Below are positions 4,334 to 31,600 of a DNA stretch of 64,000 nt, piece after piece. Within the stretch, counting starts at the first letter, position 1. Each line of letters opens with the position of its first letter. Origin of the DNA: Flavobacterium saccharophilum (GTDB taxonomy: Bacteria > Bacteroidota > Bacteroidia > Flavobacteriales > Flavobacteriaceae); assembly GCF_900142735.1 (NCBI RefSeq), contig NZ_FRBY01000007.1:1-64000 (forward strand), in the 5' to 3' direction. A program made the position numbers and the translations under genes. The notes below the pieces were generated by a model. It ran no database searches, had not been told where the DNA came from, and worked only from the letters and a program-made list of their open reading frames with translations.

Positions 4334-5206
4334 TTAGCTAATTATAATTTTATGCTCCTGACGATATTGAGATGCACTTACACCAGTATAATGCTTAAAT
4401 GATTTACTAAAATGACTAAAATTATTAAAACCACTTTCGTAACAAACCTCGTTTATACTTATTGGTTTCTCTGCTAAGAGTTTTGACGCATGGACCAAAC
4501 GATATTCATTCACAAATTCGGTAAATGTTTTGTTCGAAACTTTCTTGAAATACCTGCAAAATGAAGGTGTTGTCATACTAACCATGCTTGAAACCTCATC
4601 GATAGCAATTGATTCCTGAAAATTATCTTTCACAAAATTAAAGATCATCTTCATTCTGTCATTATCCTGCGTGTTCAGTTCGAGTGAGAAACCATCTGCA
4701 TTAAGAATGGTGTATTCTTCTGATGCCTCAAGCTCGTCTAAAATACTTAAGAGGGTCAATAAACGTTCAAATGGAAGTTGTTTTTCCATCTTTTCTATTT
4801 TATCGCCAATTTGCTTTTTAGTTTTCCCTCCAAAAGCAATTCCTCCTTTAGACTGTGTAAGGACATTTTGAACCCTTCTCATCTCCGGAGCACTAAAAAA
4901 GTCGCTGCCTAAAAATTCAGGTTTGATATGAATAACTGTCTCGTTTATATTTCCTGTCAGCTCATTTGTAAAACCACAATGAGGCAAATTTGCACCTATA
5001 AGCATCAAACTACCATTCGTATAGTAAGAAACGTGACTTCCTATTTGTCTTTTCCCTGCCCCACCGTTTATATAAACCAACTCAATTTCAGGATGATAAT
5101 GCCATAAATGAGCTTTGCTATTGGTCTTTTCGGCGTGTTTAGTGTAGGTAAAAGAACTTCCGTATGAGTTTGATATCACTTCAAGAGCTGGGGCTATTGT
5201 CTTCAT
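4334..5206 (-). CDS. AraC family transcriptional regulator
   Basis: This 290-residue one-component regulator has an N-terminal cupin-like sensor region (HLWHYHPEIELVYI at about 30-43) and a C-terminal double helix-turn-helix at about 190-290 (motifs TPSFCRYFKKV and INEVCYESGFNNFSHFSKSF). The ATG at 5206 is chosen because residues upstream are an unlikely hydrophobic run and homologues begin near MKTIAPALE. A conserved AACC-N6-GGTT site lies 62 bp upstream (5268-5281), and the same site recurs before the three small secreted-protein genes that follow. Autoregulation and control of those genes are therefore inferred. The effector is unknown; the family often senses sugars or stress. Confidence 0.88.
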   Translation of the reverse strand: MKTIAPALEVISNSYGSSFTYTKHAEKTNSKAHLWHYHPEIELVYINGGAGKRQIGSHVSYYTNGSLMLIGANLPHCGFTNELTGNINETVIHIKPEFLGSDFFSAPEMRRVQNVLTQSKGGIAFGGKTKKQIGDKIEKMEKQLPFERLLTLLSILDELEASEEYTILNADGFSLELNTQDNDRMKMIFNFVKDNFQESIAIDEVSSMVSMTTPSFCRYFKKVSNKTFTEFVNEYRLVHASKLLAEKPISINEVCYESGFNNFSHFSKSFKHYTGVSASQYRQEHKIIIS

Positions 5207-5267
5207 GATAAAATCTTTAAATAATAATAGCAAAATTAACAAAAACACCTAAAATACTTCAAATTTT

Positions 5268-5281
5268 AACCTATAACGGTT
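5268..5281. promoter_or_regulatory. Candidate operator AACC-N6-GGTT, copy 0 (upstream of AraC gene)
   Basis: AACCTATAACGGTT lies 62 bp from the AraC start codon and is followed by TCGTAA, as in the other three copies. Conservation extends about 30 bp upstream but is lost downstream. It is either an operator of the AraC gene or a remnant of a lost fourth tandem gene unit. Confidence 0.5.
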
Positions 5282-5530
5282 TCGTAATTGATAATTTATC
5301 ATAATTTTTCCTTTGCGTTAAACCACAAAAATTTCACTATTTTACCTTTTTTTTCAAGACTCCTATTTTTATCCGTGATTTTTTTAATATATCGCATTTT
5401 ATTCCCGTTTTTTATATGCATGCAGTATTCTTTGTAAGAATTACAGAATATTTATAAAATGTTAAAAATTAAAAAAACATTGAAAAATAACAACTGAATT
5501 AACCAAAATACCTTTAATAATTCAAATTTT

Positions 5531-5617
5531 AACCTATAACGGTTTCGTAAATGAGAATATAGCATATAAATTGGCTAATAGAGTTGTGAAAAAAAATCTA
5601 CCACTGAAGTAATTTAG
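5531..5617 (+). promoter_or_regulatory. Operator and promoter of small secreted protein gene 1
   Basis: The AACC-N6-GGTT site lies at 5531-5544. A -33 TTG at 5584 and a -7 element TAATTTAG at 5610-5617 are separated by 23 bp; the -7 matches TAnnTTTG at 7 of 8 positions. The operator-to-TTG distance is 53 bp, identical in all three tandem units. Transcription should start near 5624, leaving a ~35-nt leader. Confidence 0.55.
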
Positions 5618-5657
5618 CATCAGAAAAAGGAACTAATAATTTAAAGAAATAATGGTT

Positions 5658-6065
5658 ATGAAAAAGATTTTAAAATTAAGTTTAGTGTGTGCAGTACTTT
5701 TTACAGGAATGAGCACTTATGCAATTGATGGTAACGAAGATTTTACTCTTCATGTATTAAAAGGAAACGGAAAATTAGTAACATTCGCTCTTAACCAGGT
5801 TAAAAAAGCAACTCTTACTATATATGATAAAGATGGTTCAGTACTTTATTATGAGAACGCTACAGGTAAAGACGGAATCTTAAGAACTTTCAGTTTCGAA
5901 GAATTTCCAGCAGGAACTTATATCTTAGAAGTGGAAGACAGTGTAAAAAAAGTAAAACATGAAATTACAGTAACTGATGATGGCTCTTTTTTATCATCAA
6001 AAGCAATTTCATCATCTTATAAAGCAGATACAACTGCAAAAAATACTAGCGTAGCAACACGCTAA
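5658..6065 (+). CDS. Small secreted beta-sandwich protein, tandem copy 1
   Basis: This 135-residue secreted protein has signal peptide MKKILKLSLVCAVLFTGMST, cleaved near YA-IDG. The ATG at 5658 is preferred over 5652 because the two paralogues begin at exactly this residue. The mature part of about 113 residues is nearly a single beta-sandwich domain with the cadence TIYDKDGSVLYYE ... EEFPAGTYILEVEDSVKK ... HEITV. That resembles the T9SS sorting-tail fold and DUF3244-type domains, but no passenger domain is attached. No catalytic residues are evident and the function is unknown. It is followed by a conserved 3' UTR with two hairpins. It is closely related to the proteins at 6579 and 7440 and more distantly to 8229. 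Confidence 0.85.
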   Translation: MKKILKLSLVCAVLFTGMSTYAIDGNEDFTLHVLKGNGKLVTFALNQVKKATLTIYDKDGSVLYYENATGKDGILRTFSFEEFPAGTYILEVEDSVKKVKHEITVTDDGSFLSSKAISSSYKADTTAKNTSVATR

Positions 6066-6075
6066 AAAAGTTTAT

Positions 6076-6178
6076 ACTCGCATACAGTATAAAAATGAGG
6101 TTAGATAGTTAGTAAAGTTTAAAAACTGTAAAGTTTTAGAAACAGCTCTTTGTGGTTATTGAGCTGTTTTTTTTTTGC
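6076..6178 (+). terminator. Conserved 3' UTR hairpin and terminator, copy 1
   Basis: A first hairpin (TTTATACT / AGTATAAA) follows the stop codon. The segment AATGAGGTTAGATAGTTAG comes next, then a terminator hairpin AACAGCTC ... GAGCTGTT at about 6141-6168 followed by nine T residues. The same order is kept after copies 2 and 3. Confidence 0.8.
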
Positions 6179-6192
6179 TTTTAACTTAATAA

Positions 6193-6339
6193 TTTAACCG
6201 CAAAGTGCGCAAAGGTTTTTATTCCGGCTTACTTATAACAGACACAAAGTTCGCAAAGCTTTATCAACACAAAGCTTTGCGAACTTTGTGTCTGTATAAA
6301 TCCGGTATATAAAAAAACCTTGTGCACTTTGCGGTTAAA
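6193..6339. repeat. Long inverted-repeat element, AACCGCAAAG family
   Basis: Outer arms TTTAACCGCAAAGTGCGC and GTGCACTTTGCGGTTAAA enclose a nested palindrome ACACAAAGTTCGCAAAGCTT / AAGCTTTGCGAACTTTGTGT. The ~147-bp element could fold as one long hairpin. Related copies are at 7102, 17206, 19390 and 20441. It fills most of the gap between copies 1 and 2 of the small secreted-protein genes. Confidence 0.85.
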
Positions 6340-6452
6340 CTTCAAAGTAGCTTTTTTGTAAGAAACAGATAATTTTACATTTTCTTAAACACCACAAAAC
6401 GTTGAAAAATAATCGGCTATTTTACTAAAACACTAAAAATAATTCAAGTTTT

Positions 6453-6539
6453 AACCTATAACGGTTTCGTAAATGAGAATATAGCATAGAAATTGGAAAA
6501 TAGAGTTGTGTTGAAAAATGGATTTCAGAAGTAATTTAG
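6453..6539 (+). promoter_or_regulatory. Operator and promoter of small secreted protein gene 2
   Basis: The AACC-N6-GGTT site is at 6453-6466, the -33 TTG at 6506 and the -7 TAATTTAG at 6532-6539 with a 23-bp spacer. The 53-bp operator-to-TTG distance matches copies 1 and 3 exactly. Confidence 0.55.
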
Positions 6540-6578
6540 CATCAGAGAATTAGAACTATTAATTTAAAAACTAATACC

Positions 6579-6986
6579 ATGAAAAAGATTTTAAAATTGA
6601 GTTTAGTATGTGCAGTACTTTTCACAGGAATGAGTACTTATGCAATCGACGGGAATGAAGATTTTAATCTTCATGTATTAAAAAGAGATGGTAAACTAGT
6701 GACTTTTGCGCTTAACCAGGTTAAGAAAGCAAATTTAACTATTTATGACAAAGATGGTTCTGTATTATATTATGAAAGTGCTTCTGGTAAAGATGGAATC
6801 TTAAGAACCTTCAATTTTGAGGAATTTCCTGAAGGAACATACATCTTAGAAGTAGAAGATAGCGTAAAGAAAGTGAGACATGAAATTACAATAACTGATG
6901 AGGCTACTGTTTTATCATCAAAAGCAATTTCATCTGTTTATAAAGCAGATTCAACTGCAAAAAGTACAAGCGTAGCAGTACGCTAA
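6579..6986 (+). CDS. Small secreted beta-sandwich protein, tandem copy 2
   Basis: This 135-residue paralogue has the same signal peptide as the copies at 5658 and 7440. Compared with copy 1 it has scattered substitutions (for example KRDGK for KGNGK and PEGTY for PAGTY), and the core strands and length are unchanged. The tail SSKAISSVYKADSTAKSTSVAVR is Ser/Thr-rich and disordered-looking. The unit, including promoter, CDS, 3' UTR and terminator, has been duplicated as a block of about 0.86-0.92 kb. Function unknown; a secreted or surface role is inferred from the signal peptide. Confidence 0.85.
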   Translation: MKKILKLSLVCAVLFTGMSTYAIDGNEDFNLHVLKRDGKLVTFALNQVKKANLTIYDKDGSVLYYESASGKDGILRTFNFEEFPEGTYILEVEDSVKKVRHEITITDEATVLSSKAISSVYKADSTAKSTSVAVR

Positions 6987-6996
6987 AAAAGTTTAT

Positions 6997-7093
6997 ACTC
7001 TCATAAAGTATAAAAATGAGGTTAGATAGTTAGTAAAGTAAAAACGTGATTGTTTATAAACAGCTCTTTGTGGTTATTGAGCTGTTTTTTTTG
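6997..7093 (+). terminator. Conserved 3' UTR hairpin and terminator, copy 2
   Basis: The TTATACT / AGTATAA hairpin has a different loop (CTCATAA) from copy 1 but the same stem. It is followed by the terminator AACAGCTC ... GAGCTGTT at about 7059-7086 with a T run. Confidence 0.78.
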
Positions 7094-7101
7094 TTTCCTA
7101 C

Positions 7102-7200
7102 TTAACCGCAAAGTTCGCAAAGTTTTATTGATAAAGCTTTGCGAACTTTTTCGTCTGTATAACACCTGATATGTAAAAACCTGGCGTTCCTTGCGGTTAA
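7102..7200. repeat. Inverted-repeat element, AACCGCAAAG family (degenerate)
   Basis: It starts TTAACCGCAAAGTTCGC and ends CCTTGCGGTTAA, with an internal AAAGTTTTATTGATAAAGCTTT hairpin region. It is a shortened relative of the element at 6193-6339 and lies between copies 2 and 3. Confidence 0.75.
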
Positions 7201-7314
7201 ATTTAAAAGTCACTTTTGTAAGAATTACAGATAAATTTACACTCTCTTAATTTAAATAAAACATTAAAAAATAATAAGTGAATTAACAAAAACAATAAAA
7301 ATAATTCAACTTTT

Positions 7315-7401
7315 AACCTATAACGGTTTCGTAAATGAGAATACAGCATCGAAATTGGAAAATAGAGTTGTGAGAAAAACACAATAACTTAAGTAATTTA
7401 G
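7315..7401 (+). promoter_or_regulatory. Operator and promoter of small secreted protein gene 3
   Basis: The AACC-N6-GGTT site is at 7315-7328, the -33 TTG at 7368 and the -7 TAATTTAG at 7394-7401, again with a 23-bp spacer and a 53-bp operator-to-TTG distance. Confidence 0.55.
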
Positions 7402-7439: not shown

Positions 7440-7847
7440 ATGAAAAAGATTTTAAAATTGAGTTTAGTATGTGCTGTACTTTTCACCGGAATGAGTACTT
7501 ATGCAATCGACGGGAATGAAGATTTTAATCTTCATGTTTTAAAAACAAATGGAAAGCTTATCACATTTGCCCTTAATCAGGTGAAAAAAGCAAGCTTGTC
7601 TATTTACGACAAAGATGGTAATCTAATTTATTCTGAAAATGCTTCAGGTAAAGATGGAATTTTGAGAACTTTTAGCTTAGAGGAATTTCCGGAAGGAACT
7701 TACTATTTAGAAGTTGAAGATAATGTGAAAAAAGTAAAACATGAAATTACAATTACTGATGAAGCTACTGTTTTGTCAAAAAAAGCAGTTTCATCAGTTT
7801 ACAAAGCTGGTTTCTACAATAAAAATACAAGTGTAGCAACACGTTAA
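7440..7847 (+). CDS. Small secreted beta-sandwich protein, tandem copy 3
   Basis: This 135-residue paralogue is the most diverged of the three close copies (NLIYSENASG, PEGTYYLEVEDNVKK, tail YKAGFYNKNTSVATR). The signal peptide is identical to copy 2, and the hydrophobic core of the sandwich is kept, which argues that all copies are under selection and not decaying. Its terminator is at 7919-7948. Function unknown. Confidence 0.85.
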   Translation: MKKILKLSLVCAVLFTGMSTYAIDGNEDFNLHVLKTNGKLITFALNQVKKASLSIYDKDGNLIYSENASGKDGILRTFSLEEFPEGTYYLEVEDNVKKVKHEITITDEATVLSKKAVSSVYKAGFYNKNTSVATR

Positions 7848-8228: not shown

Positions 8229-8615
8229 ATGACAAATTTTACCAAAATGGGCATGGTTGTAGCCTTATTTCTAACAACAATTTTTACCTACGCGATTGAT
8301 GGAAAAGGAGATTATATTTTGAATATAATTACCGGAAACGGAAAAGTAGTTAGTTTTACTTTACACACCGTTGAAAAATCAGTTTTTTCTATTTATGATG
8401 AAAATCACAATTTGCTTTACACAGGAGATTCTGCTGCAGACAAATTAGAGATTTCAAAAACAATAAGTTTAGAAGGTTTTCCAGCCGGAACTTACGTTTT
8501 AGAAGTAACAGAAAGCGGTAAAGTTGCCAAACATGAAATTAAAGTTGTAGCTAAAAAAGTAAAAAAAGTTGCATTAGACGAATCAGTAAACGAAAGTCCT
8601 GGTTTTCGTCGCTAG
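8229..8615 (+). CDS. Small secreted beta-sandwich protein, diverged paralogue 4
   Basis: This 128-residue protein is clearly related to the three upstream copies: signal peptide ending near TYA-IDGKGDY, core VFSIYDENHNLLYTG, then EGFPAGTYVLEVTESGKVAKHEI. Overall similarity is much lower. It lacks the AACC-N6-GGTT operator and the 3' UTR hairpin, so it is probably regulated differently. The Lys-rich linker (KVVAKKVKKV) and short C-terminus are unique to it. It has a terminator at 8641-8671. Function unknown. Confidence 0.8.
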   Translation: MTNFTKMGMVVALFLTTIFTYAIDGKGDYILNIITGNGKVVSFTLHTVEKSVFSIYDENHNLLYTGDSAADKLEISKTISLEGFPAGTYVLEVTESGKVAKHEIKVVAKKVKKVALDESVNESPGFRR

Positions 8616-9302: not shown

Positions 9303-12300
9303 TTACATGTTTCTTCTATACTGCCCACCCACTTCAAACAAAGCCGAAGTAATCTGACCCAACGAGCAAACTTTTGTAGCTTCCATTAAATGGTCGAATA
9401 AGTTTTCGTTTTTAATAGCAGCTTCCTGTAATTTGTTTAAATGCTCGTTTACTTTTGCTTCATGAAATTGGTGCAAATTATCCAGCATTGTAATTTGATA
9501 TTGTTTTTCTTCTTCGGTGGCGCGAATTACTTCTGCCGGAATTACCGTTGGAGAACCTTTTGAACTTAGGAAAGTATTTACACCCACAATTGGAAAATCT
9601 CCGTTGTGTTTTAAGGTTTCGTAATACAAACTTTCTTCCTGAATTTTAGAACGTTGGTACATGGTTTCCATAGCACCCAAAACGCCACCTCTTTCTGTAA
9701 TTCTGTCGAATTCCTGTAAAACAGCTGCTTCCACTAAATCGGTTAATTCTTCGATGATAAACGATCCCTGAATTGGGTTTTCATTTTTCGCCAAACCTAA
9801 TTCTTTATTGATAATCAACTGAATCGCCATGGCACGACGCACTGACTCTTCTGTTGGTGTTGTAATTGCTTCATCGTAAGCGTTTGTATGCAATGAATTA
9901 CAGTTGTCGTAAATCGCATACAAAGCCTGCAAAGTCGTTCTAATATCATTAAAATCAATTTCCTGAGCGTGTAATGAACGACCAGAAGTCTGAATATGAT
10001 ATTTCAGCATTTGTGCTCTTTCGTTGGCTCCGTATTTGTTTTTCATGGCTTTCGCCCAAATTTTACGTGCCACACGACCAATTACTGAATATTCCGGATC
10101 TACTCCATTCGAGAAGAAAAACGATAAATTAGGTCCAAAATCGTTGATGCTCATTCCGCGGCTCAAATAGTATTCCACGTAAGTGAAACCATTTGAAAGT
10201 GTGAAAGCCAACTGTGTAATTGGGTTCGCTCCCGCCTCTGCAATATGATATCCAGAAATCGAAACCGAATAGAAATTACGAACGTTTTTGGTAATAAAAT
10301 ATTCCTGAACGTCACCCATTAATCGAAGTGCAAATTCAGTTGAGAAAATACAGGTATTTTGCGCCTGATCTTCTTTTAAAATATCGGCCTGAACAGTACC
10401 ACGAACTTGTGATAATGTTTTAACTTTTATTTCATTATAAACTTCTAAAGGCAAAACTTCGTCTCCGGTAACACCCAAAAGCATTAATCCTAAACCATTG
10501 TTTCCTTCCGGTAAATCGCCTTGGTATTTCGGACGCTCCGTTCCTTTTTCCTTGTATATTTTGTTGATTTTAGCTTCAACTTCTTTTTCTAAATCATTCT
10601 CCTTAATATAATACTCGCATTGCTGATCAATCGCGGCATTCATAAAGAAACCTAACAACATCGGTGCTGGTCCGTTGATCGTCATACTTACTGATGTTAA
10701 AGCATGAACCAAATCAAAACCGGAATACAGTTTTTTAGCATCATCTAAACAACAGATTGAAACTCCTGCATTTCCAATTTTTCCGTAAATATCCGGACGT
10801 AAATCGGGATCGTTTCCGTATAAAGTCACACTGTCAAAAGCAGTCGAAAGTCGTTTTGCCGGCAATCCTGCGCTCACATAATGAAAACGTTTATTTGTTC
10901 TCTCCGGTCCGCCTTCTCCTGCAAACATTCTTGATGGATCTTCTCCTTCTCTTTTAAAAGGATATAATCCTGAAGCAAAAGGAAATTCACCCGGAACATT
11001 TTCCTGTAAACTCCAACGTAAAATATCCCCCCAGGCCTCATATTTAGGCAAAGCAATTTTCGGAATTTGCAGGTGTGATAAACTCTCGGTATGTGTCGCG
11101 ATTTTAATTTCTTTATCACGAACCTTAAAGGTATAAACCGGGTTTTTGTATTTATTTACTTTCTCATCCCAATTTAGGATAATTTCCCAATTGTACGGAT
11201 CTAAATCCATTTTTACTTTATCAAATTGATTTAGTAAAAGGTTTAAGAAAATTCTGTTTTCATCGTGTTCCTGAATTCCGGCTGGCAAAACAGTTGCATC
11301 ATCAATTCCAGCTTTATTGATTTCCGGAATTTTACCCGAAACCGATTCTATCGTTTTGAAGATTCCATATAATTTCTGTGCTACTTTTTGTTGTGACAGC
11401 GCAATTTCATCATAGCTTCTGTTGTTCTCTGCAATTTCAGATAAATAACGTGTTCTGTGTGGCGGAATCACGAAGATTTTCTCACTCATTTCACGCGTAA
11501 TCTCAAAAGTCGATTTTAAATCTGAATCGGTTTTTTCGACAATTTTATCCATGATCGCTTTGTAAAGCGTGTTCATTCCCGGATCATTAAACTGCGAAGC
11601 AATAGTTCCGAAAACCGGCATTTCATCCGGATTTTTATCCCATAAATTATGATTGCGCTGGTATTGTTTTTTAACGTCACGAATGGCGTCTAAAGCACCT
11701 CTTTTATCAAACTTGTTTAAAGCTACCAAATCAGCAAAATCAAGCATGTCGATTTTCTCTAATTGTGTTGCAGCTCCAAACTCAGGTGTCATTACATATA
11801 AGGATACATCAGAATGGTCCATAATCTCTGTATCAGACTGACCAATTCCTGAAGTTTCAAGAATAATTAAATCATATTTTGCAGCTTTTAGAACCTGAAT
11901 GGCTTCGGCAACATATTTAGATAAAGCCAAATTAGATTGACGAGTTGCCAAGGAACGCATATAAACACGAGGATTATTAATTGCATTCATTCGGATTCTG
12001 TCTCCTAATAAAGCACCTCCTGTTTTTCTTTTTGATGGATCGACAGAAATCAATCCGATAGTTTTCTCTGGAAAGTCAATTAAAAAACGACGAACTAATT
12101 CGTCAACTAAAGAAGATTTTCCGGCTCCTCCTGTTCCGGTAATTCCCAAAACAGGAATTTTAGAATCAGCATTATTGGTATGAATCTGATCAAAAACGGG
12201 TTTTGCAATTTCAGGGAAGTTTTCTGCTGCTGAAATTAAACGTGCAATTGCAGTTGGAATTTTATTTTCAATATGATCAATTTCTCCATTTAGTTTATCT

Positions 12301-12743
12301 CCAATTGGATAATCGGCACGTTGTACTAAATCATTAATCATTCCCTGTAAACCTAAAGAACGGCCATCATCTGGAGAATAAATTCTGGTAATACCATATT
12401 CATGTAATTCAGAAATTTCGCTTGGCAGGATTACACCTCCGCCTCCACCAAAAATCTTGATATGTCCCGCTCCTTTTTCGTGAAGCAAGTCATACATATA
12501 TTTAAAGTATTCATTATGCCCACCTTGATATGATGTCATTGCAATGGCATTTGCATCTTCCTGAATGGCGGTATTCACCACTTCTTCAACGCTTCTGTCG
12601 TGACCTAAATGAATCACTTCGACACCCGTTGACTGGATAATACGACGCATAATATTAATCGCGGCATCGTGCCCGTCAAAAAGAGAGGCTGCGGTGACAA
12701 TTCTTACTTTATTTTTAGGAATATATGGTATTTGTTGTTCCAT
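9303..12743 (-). CDS. icmF: Fused B12-dependent acyl-CoA mutase with GTPase chaperone (IcmF type)
   Basis: This 1146-residue protein is organised as in IcmF. An N-terminal B12-binding domain (about 12-145) has DGHDAA at 23-28, SYQGG at 71 and a Gly run at 99-103. A MeaB-like G domain follows, with P-loop GTGGAGKS at 203-210, ETSGIGQSD near 296 and NKFD at 343-346. The C-terminal TIM-barrel mutase has [12 protein letters not shown] and [16 protein letters not shown]. IcmF interconverts isobutyryl-CoA and n-butyryl-CoA with adenosylcobalamin, and the fused GTPase gates cofactor loading and protection. The fusion and domain order distinguish it from two-subunit methylmalonyl-CoA mutase, but annotation pipelines often give that name. 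I did not verify the substrate-defining active-site residues, so substrate preference is inferred. It is a single gene; cobalamin demand fits the BtuF-like gene at 19582. Confidence 0.88.
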
Positions 12744-15173: not shown

Positions 15174-15302
15174 TTAACTCGTTGGAGTTTTCTTGCACGC
15201 AGATTTGGGCGGATTTTAGAAGATCAGCGCAGATTCTCTATTTTCTATACTCTTTCCTCTTTCCTCTTTCCTCTAAAATTGAAAAAACCGAAACCTCTAA
15301 AC

Positions 15303-15374
15303 TAGCCCCGATAGTAGTGTAAATCCTTTTGTGCCGGGGTTCGGCACAAAAGATTGGAACGGATAGCGGGACTA
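15303..15374 (+). ncRNA. Structured RNA element, possibly the Flavo-1 motif
   Basis: The outer helix TAGCCCCG / CGGGACTA encloses an internal loop carrying GATAGTAG and GGATAG. An inner helix AATCCTTTTGTGCCG / CGGCACAAAAGATT caps it with a GGGTT-type loop. A second copy at 31463-31566 keeps the same outer GATAG motifs, but its inner arm reads CCTTTTTAGGCA / TGCCTAAAAAG, which is compensatory change. From memory this resembles the Flavo-1 RNA motif of Bacteroidetes; I could not check against the model. The rest of the 15174-15469 gap holds a degraded CACGCAGATTT repeat and the promoter of the next gene. Confidence 0.5.
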
Positions 15375-15416
15375 ATGTTAATTATGAAACAAATTACGTG
15401 TGCTCCTAAAATAAAA

Positions 15417-31462: not shown

Positions 31463-31566
31463 GAGCTATTTCCTGCTATCCGCTATATCTTTTTAGGCAG
31501 ATTGTTTTCGTTTGGATTAGAAATTTTCGGTTGCCTAAAAAGGATGCCGCTGCTATCAGGGCTAGG
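31463..31566 (-). ncRNA. Structured RNA element, possible Flavo-1 motif (copy 2)
   Basis: Read on the minus strand: TAGCCCTGATAGCAGCGGCA, then CCTTTTTAGGCA, a long loop, TGCCTAAAAAG and ATAGCGGATAGCAGG. The order of motifs is the same as at 15303-15374 but the inner stem sequence differs, and it remains fully paired. It lies 125 bp upstream of prfA in the same orientation, so it could be a leader element or an independent small RNA. Confidence 0.5.
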
Positions 31567-31600
31567 GGTTTTGGTTTTAATTATGCCTTTTATCTCAAAT

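What the first reader, a model, noticed from the sequence alone, without database searches (positions are those of the whole stretch)
5268..7401. Four copies of a conserved AACC-N6-GGTT box, at fixed distance from three promoters
AACCTATAACGGTT followed by TCGTAA occurs at 5268, 5531, 6453 and 7315. In the last three it begins exactly 53 bp before the TTG of a TTG-N23-TAATTTAG promoter. The first copy lies upstream of the divergent AraC gene, where flanking similarity stops just past the box. An activator site shared by the regulator and its target genes would explain this.
Basis: partly seen in the sequence, partly recalled or inferred. Interest (0 to 1): 0.58.

Follow-up and report, generated by a model that had tools for sequence, protein, structure and literature searches.

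The report
AraC operator shared with secreted-protein genes
The repeated DNA box is part of a longer, very old switch site that sits at a fixed distance in front of a family of small secreted-protein genes and beside their neighbouring regulator gene in many related bacteria; it very probably marks an undescribed but ordinary kind of regulator-and-target pair.

Summary
In detail: the 14-mer occurs four times at the stated places and nowhere else in the 5.2-Mb genome; copies 2-4 start exactly 53 bp before TTG-N23-TAATTTAG. The reading (operator shared by the AraC gene and its targets) is largely supported, but AACC-N6-GGTT is not the conserved unit. Comparison of 69 Flavobacterium, 60 family and 15 more distant loci shows a ~50-bp block: site A (TTAACCTATAACGnTTTCGTAA) beside the araC promoter, and site B (AATATAGCATAnAAATnnGnAAA), which starts 54 bp before the target's TAnnTT element in 80 of 94 genus and family loci (55 in 6) and in 12 of 15 distant ones. 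Ancestral layout: araC / one block / divergent secreted gene, about 187 bp between start codons. In the window's clade (30 genomes) copy 1 kept site A, lost site B, and lies 260-263 bp before copy 2. Unlinked target copies keep the 54 bp (7 of 7 measured). Targets are DUF3244-like secreted proteins. Best reading: this AraC protein binds the sites, activates the targets and controls itself; binding and sign are inferred. New member of a known kind. Boldest untested option: a DNA loop across the spacer.

The parts
4334..5206 (-). AraC-family regulator gene, 290 aa, divergent from the target genes
   Evidence: HTH_18 E 8e-21, 74.6 bits vs cut-off 33.6; orthologs at E<=1.6e-99 in 69 of 199 genus genomes
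5231..5238 (-). -7 element of the araC promoter (TAATTTTG on the - strand); TTG at 5262-5260, 21 bp upstream of it
   Evidence: read; usually kept as CAAAnTTA on the + strand in the alignments; TAnnTTTG consensus from passages of PMC6847099
5268..5287 (+). site A, copy 1, beside the araC promoter (about -42 to -61 of the inferred araC start)
   Evidence: mean column identity 0.97 in 30 genomes while the following site-B stretch has 0.68
5288..5530 (.). spacer of nearly constant length between copies 1 and 2 (start to start 260-263 bp in 30 genomes), with T-tracts at 5347-5354, 5366-5370, 5379-5385 and GTAAGAA at 5434-5440
   Evidence: coordinates read
5531..5550 (+). site A, copy 2
5556..5578 (+). 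site B of target gene 1 (about -66 to -44 of the inferred start)
5584..5617 (+). promoter of target gene 1: TTG 5584-5586, TAATTTAG 5610-5617
5658..6065 (+). target gene 1, secreted single-domain DUF3244-like protein, 135 aa if started at ATG 5658
6453..6472 (+). site A, copy 3
6478..6500 (+). site B of target gene 2
   Evidence: exact match
6506..6539 (+). promoter of target gene 2: TTG 6506-6508, TAATTTAG 6532-6539
6579..6986 (+). target gene 2
   Evidence: predicted fold
7315..7334 (+). site A, copy 4
7340..7362 (+). site B of target gene 3 (more than one mismatch to the pattern, so not listed there)
   Evidence: by position; similarity to copies 2 and 3
7368..7401 (+). promoter of target gene 3: TTG 7368-7370, TAATTTAG 7394-7401
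7440..7847 (+). target gene 3
8229..8615 (+). fourth paralog, without the block (best match 23 of 49 positions); probably outside this control

Best explanation
The boxes are parts of an operator for the AraC-family protein encoded at 4334-5206. The full operator is a ~50-bp block lying between the divergent araC and target promoters. Site A abuts the araC -33 element (centre about -52 of the araC start). Site B abuts the target -33 element (centre about -55 of the target start), a usual place for an AraC-type activator. When its ligand state is right, the protein occupies site B (helped by site A) and activates the secreted-protein genes; through site A it also controls its own gene. In the window's clade the target was multiplied in tandem with its block, and the original block was left at araC as a site-A-only element about 262 bp from the next block. 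Shown: sequence, position, conservation, linkage. Inferred: that this protein binds the block, that it activates, the order of events, and the start positions (from the -7 elements).
For: All 69 AraC orthologs (E<=1.6e-99) in 199 genus genomes have a target gene divergent from them; start codons are 184-204 bp apart in 34, 448-452 in 30 and 434-896 in 5. 70 of 199 genomes have the target at E<=1e-5; the one outside the 69 (G044) lies near a contig end. A box with up to 4 mismatches starts 53-64 bp from the araC start in 57 of 69; the 12 others have none at that threshold but align in the same block. Site B to the -7 element is 54 bp in 80 and 55 bp in 6 of 94 loci, 54 bp in 12 of 15 loci outside the family and 54 bp in the 6 Pedobacter loci opened. 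Mean best site-B score is 14.2 (genus) and 13.5 (family) of 15 against 10.6 in shuffled sequence. Target copies on other contigs or more than 1 Mb from araC keep 54 bp in 7 of 7 measured. In 199 genomes exact site B occurs in 35 of the 70 genomes with the module and 0 of the 129 without; with up to 1 mismatch in 59 of 70 and 11 of 129 (counted by hand; the pattern was drawn from module loci). Half-wise decay of copy 1: site A 0.97 vs site B 0.68 in 30 genomes; at copy 2, 0.99 and 0.94. In 140 orthologs residues 231-245 of the DNA-binding domain are the best conserved bin, 0.93.
Against: No binding or expression data exist here. araC, block and target are neighbours, so joint inheritance alone does not prove that this AraC is the binder. 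Site A differs strongly outside Flavobacterium, and its AACC end is missing at most of the unlinked target copies measured, so site A may have another role. 8 of 94 loci gave no 54/55 spacing with the simple scoring, 3 of 15 distant AraC hits (41-43% identity) lack the block, and 11 of 70 module genomes have no site B within 1 mismatch of the pattern.
Confidence: 0.72

Rival explanations
1. The block is bound by a different, unlinked regulator; the AraC gene is only a neighbour or one more target.
For: Binding was not tested, and neighbours are inherited together.
Against: The pairing in 69 of 69 loci, ortholog-and-block pairing across Bacteroidia and absence of exact site B from the 129 genomes without the module are what a cognate pair gives.
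Confidence: 0.15
2. AraC and the block are right, but the protein represses the targets or itself, or switches between repression and activation.
For: AraC of E. coli does both (passages of PMC7408454); site A lies just upstream of the araC -33.
Against: By the inferred starts both sites lie upstream of the -33 elements and none overlaps a -7 element or start, which suits activation better.
Confidence: 0.2
3. The boxes are only relics of recent tandem duplication, without function.
For: Copies 2-4 precede similar genes (83-87% identity) and were surely duplicated together.
Against: Columns of the block stay fixed across species whose flanks differ, and copy 1 keeps only its araC-side half.
Confidence: 0.03
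4. AACC-N6-GGTT is a dyad for a dimeric regulator of another class.
For: The dyad with the window's core is perfect in 36 of 199 genus genomes (counted by hand).
Against: In other congeners the second half differs while the rest stays, and the AACC half is missing at most unlinked copies measured.
Confidence: 0.05

Closest known systems
E. coli araC-araBAD control region (AraC/XylS family; from passages of review PMC7408454)
   Same: AraC-type regulator; activator half-sites upstream of the target promoter centred at -52.5 (here site B centred about -55); a further AraC site far upstream (211 bp there; here copy 1 is about 262 bp before copy 2). That araC is divergent from araBAD is recalled.
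   Different: Targets are secreted DUF3244-like proteins, not sugar enzymes; no CAP site was sought; loop and ligand unknown; Bacteroidota -33/-7 promoters. The site sequences were not compared with those of E. coli.
DUF3244 (PF11589) and type A sorting domain (PF18962/TIGR04183) beta-sandwich proteins, solved as 3sd2, 4g5a, 3d33 and 8glk chain D
   Same: Predicted fold of the target; DUF3244 passes its cut-off in 4 of 8 distant targets scanned and PF18962 in 4 of 8.
   Different: The window targets are free-standing single domains of 135 aa with a tail and miss the Pfam cut-offs; in the distant relatives aligned the target has about 197 aa with a second similar domain.

Membership tests
AraC/XylS transcriptional regulators | C-terminal pair of helix-turn-helix motifs | tested here: met
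   HTH_18 74.6 bits vs 33.6, HTH_AraC 52.5 bits vs 26.6 with 2 stretches
AraC/XylS transcriptional regulators | N-terminal cupin-like ligand domain | tested here: inconclusive
   Cupin_2 19.3 bits below its cut-off 27.2; AraC_binding 15 below 21.1; H36, H38, E40, E42, H76 are at least 95% conserved in 140 orthologs; that such residues form a cupin site is recalled
AraC/XylS transcriptional regulators | binds and regulates the neighbouring block | not testable with these tools
   positional and comparative evidence only
DUF3244 / type A sorting domain proteins | sequence match above the family cut-off | tested here: inconclusive
   window gene 1: DUF3244 22.1 vs 25 and PF18962 21.1 vs 27, both missed; TIGR04183 23.3 vs 23, just met. 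Relatives L310, L340, L345, L346 pass DUF3244. A profile search of PDB sequences found no DUF3244 chain; best was 3isy, E 0.0021
DUF3244 / type A sorting domain proteins | Ig-like beta-sandwich fold | tested here: met
   AlphaFold2 model pLDDT 78, pTM 0.72; the four best Foldseek matches are 3sd2, 4g5a, 8glk chain D and 3d33, E 0.003-0.008, prob 1.00; none reaches E 0.001
T9SS cargo proteins | sorting domain at the extreme C-terminus behind a separate passenger (recalled definition) | tested here: not met
   the domain is nearly the whole mature protein and about 30 residues follow it
AraC-type DNA-loop regulation (E. coli ara) | two distant sites on one helical face | tested here: met
   spacing 260-263 bp, mean 262.0, SD 0.7 in 30 genomes; 24.8-25.0 turns at 10.5 bp by my arithmetic; geometry only
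AraC-type DNA-loop regulation (E. coli ara) | loop formed by the protein and changed by a ligand | not testable with these tools
   needs protein and DNA

The most novel reading that the evidence does not exclude
In the window's clade copy 1 and copy 2 form a built-in DNA loop: AraC bound at the site-A-only element at araC and at the full block of target gene 1 touch across a spacer kept at 25 helical turns (260-263 bp in 30 of 30 genomes), with three T-tracts and a TGTAAGAA motif at fixed places. It would be an ara-like loop switch that arose on its own in Bacteroidota when an old shared operator was split in two.
Probability: 0.18. Interest if true: 0.65.

Novelty: new member of a known kind. 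Interest (0 to 1): 0.45.

Why it matters
If right, one regulator-operator-target unit has been kept with base-pair spacing across Flavobacteriaceae and into Pedobacter and other families. It would be a natural model for how AraC-type proteins activate the unusual -33/-7 promoters of Bacteroidota, and a handle on when these bacteria make this unstudied group of secreted DUF3244-like proteins. I found no paper on the pair in five searches of an open-access library. Of the papers listed in all my searches I saw passages of three (PMC9723704, PMC6847099, PMC7408454) and otherwise only the listings, so absence from print is not established.

Tried and rejected
RNA element in the 262-bp spacer: no consensus structure on 30 sequences, + strand only. 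Further own-genome targets: two near-matches of site A elsewhere have no site B or promoter behind them. Fourth paralog as a hidden target: no block. GTAAGAA as a general part of the block: it lies 81-115 bp upstream (35 times at 97) of 46 of 114 boxes that have a -7 element and of 0 of 32 that have none; 55 of the 101 non-first boxes lack it, so it belongs mainly to the double-box layout. Neutral length drift as the reason for the constant spacer: crude star-tree simulations gave an equal or smaller spread in 1.25% of runs at the most lenient setting and in none at the five others; the star tree overstates independence. Looping literature: listing plus passages of PMC7408454. One search's site-B column was limited to the first 330 bp and is blank or wrong for double-box loci, so I use it only for the Pedobacter spacing. 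The two other HMM libraries (PHROGs, PADLOC), a second fold job and the other structure libraries were not used.

Full report
Observation. The four exact copies are at 5268, 5531, 6453 and 7315. The own genome (5,209,309 bases) holds no other exact copy. TAATTTAG is a variant of the Bacteroidota -7 element TAnnTTTG (passages of PMC6847099, and of PMC9723704).

Surroundings. 4334-5206 on the - strand encodes an AraC-family protein. Three similar secreted proteins follow at 5658, 6579 and 7440 (83-87% identity); a fourth, more distant paralog at 8229 has no block. On the - strand araC has its own promoter, TTG-N21-TAATTTTG, and copy 1 begins 5 bp beyond that TTG. If T of the -7 element is -12, as in PMC6847099, copy 1 covers about -42 to -61 of the araC start.

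Comparison within the genus. The pattern AACCN6GGTTTCGTAA matches 44 of 199 genus genomes. By hand count 36 of these carry the window's core (or a one-base variant), one to four per genome and mostly clustered; the other 8 have single matches with unrelated cores. The reversed-pattern control also gives scattered matches (74 by hand count), so it is the shared core and the clustering that count. The AraC ortholog (E<=1.6e-99; the next match is 1.8e-58) is in 69 of 199 genomes and the target gene (E<=1e-5) in 70. The one genome with target but no listed AraC, G044, ends 567 bp upstream of the target, and an AraC start can be read there by eye. In all 69 the target lies divergent from araC. In 34 the start codons are 184-204 bp apart with one block between; in 30, the window's type, they are 448-452 bp apart with two; 5 have other layouts (434-896 bp). 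The true block is therefore site A plus site B.

Half-wise decay. In the 30 double-block genomes site A has mean column identity 0.97 at copy 1 and 0.99 at copy 2; site B has 0.68 and 0.94. At the place of the -7 element copy 1 has a T-tract. So only the araC-side half of copy 1 seems to be under constraint, as expected of autoregulation; that copy 1 once drove a target gene is inferred from the one-block layout of the other species.

Beyond the genus. The AraC ortholog (E<=1e-70) is in 163 of 299 family genomes, 139 of 236 genera, and in 41 of 395 phylum genomes, 14 of them outside the family. I fetched 60 of the 163 family hits, chosen across the identity range, and 15 loci from those 14 genomes. 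Taking the best site-B score and then looking for TAnnTT gave 54 bp in 80 and 55 bp in 6 of 94 (34 genus, 60 family) loci. The 8 others are G031, G005, G453, G438, G262, G294, G440 and G353; in several the best-scoring stretch lay elsewhere. Of the 15 distant loci 12 show 54 bp; the 3 others belong to AraC proteins of 41-43% identity. The six Pedobacter loci that I opened have the block, the divergent gene and 54 bp. A forward ATG-started ORF of at least 70 aa was found beyond araC in 58 of the 60 family loci, not in G434 and G200; these ORFs were not all compared by sequence.

Unlinked targets. In G168, G112, G094, G030, G151, G010 and G003 further copies of the target lie on another contig or more than 1 Mb from araC. 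I measured one from each: all seven keep site B 54 bp before the -7 element. The further copies of G168 and G112 printed read the same there but were not measured; a cut-off copy in G151 (L175) was not used. Three of the six loci of G168 and G112 were tested with Rfam and lie beside rRNA operons; the others show the same reading frames of rRNA type. In the five copies of the G168 type the AACC end of site A is absent while CGTTTTCGTAA and site B are kept.

Specificity. Site B alone, with up to 1 mismatch, matches 59 of the 70 module genomes and 11 of the 129 others; the reversed-pattern control gives 28 matches in all (these counts are by hand). Exact matches number 53, in 35 of the 70 module genomes and none of the 129 others. 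52 of the 53 lie within about 6 kb of araC; the other (G162, contig 107) directly precedes a target copy. In G005, G051 and G074 the exact site is on the far side of araC, before a second target copy with TATCTTTG at 54 bp. Single-mismatch matches in genomes without the module (12) and off the cluster in module genomes (7) are no commoner than in the control. The pattern was drawn from module loci, which favours them.

Targets. In the distant relatives aligned the target is a ~197-aa protein with two similar domains; the window copies have one. The AlphaFold2 model (pLDDT 78, pTM 0.72) matches DUF3244 structures and a T9SS sorting domain best, at E 0.003-0.008; a sequence-profile search of the PDB did not find them. 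Function is unknown.

Mechanism. Site B (about -66 to -44) is where AraC-type activators act; the E. coli half-sites are centred at -52.5 (PMC7408454 passages). Site A is in the same place at the araC promoter. The -33 TTG of targets is poorly kept across species, which suits activator dependence, though a -33 motif is weak in F. johnsoniae promoters in general (PMC6847099 passages). The AraC N-terminal domain keeps H36, H38, E40, E42 and H76 in at least 95% of 140 orthologs (G149, G663 and the two G674 proteins were left out), so a metal or small ligand is plausible; that is inference.

The spacer. Copy 1 to copy 2 is 260-263 bp (262 in 19, 263 in 6, 261 in 4, 260 in 1) in 30 genomes, while the next intergenic stretch (gene 1 stop to the next box) varies from 261 to 1055 bp. 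Spacer sequence differs by about 36% between pairs, and two genomes (G075, G091) have compensating insertions and deletions. Three T-tracts and TGTAAGAA are invariant or nearly so. There is no RNA structure on the + strand. 262 bp is 24.95 turns of 10.5 bp. A loop between the sites is possible but untested; a cluster of other binding sites would also fix the length.

Verdict. The finding is real and the idea of a shared operator is well supported in a corrected form. It is a new member of a known kind: a local AraC regulator with a divergent target. Its breadth and exact spacing are its main interest.

Noticed in passing
L354:3231-4003, L356:3019-3791, L358:3089-4251: Near-identical extra copies of the target gene with its block lie a few hundred bp beyond the 5S rRNA gene of rRNA operons in G168 and G112; they may have spread by exchange between the operons.
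   Followed up: partly
5288-5530: Spacer of nearly constant length with three fixed T-tracts and TGTAAGAA, conserved in 30 genomes.
   Followed up: partly
15300-15377 (+) and 31465-31567 (-): Two Flavo-1 RNA matches above the Rfam gathering score.
   Followed up: no
8229-8615: Fourth paralog lacks the block; in G010 an unlinked target copy with a block lies beside a gene resembling the one at 9303-12743 here (by eye).
   Followed up: partly
6190-6345 and 7100-7200: Repeats of the type cgcaaagttcgcaaag between the gene copies, seen by eye.
   Followed up: no
L318, L321, L324, L326, L327, L332: In Pedobacter the pair lies a few hundred bp before three short ORFs that look like rpsF, rpsR and rplI (named from recall).
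   Followed up: no
L357:3568-4890 and L359:1238-2561: ORFs that look like pieces of a transposase lie between a target copy and the rRNA-type frames (named from recall).
   Followed up: no
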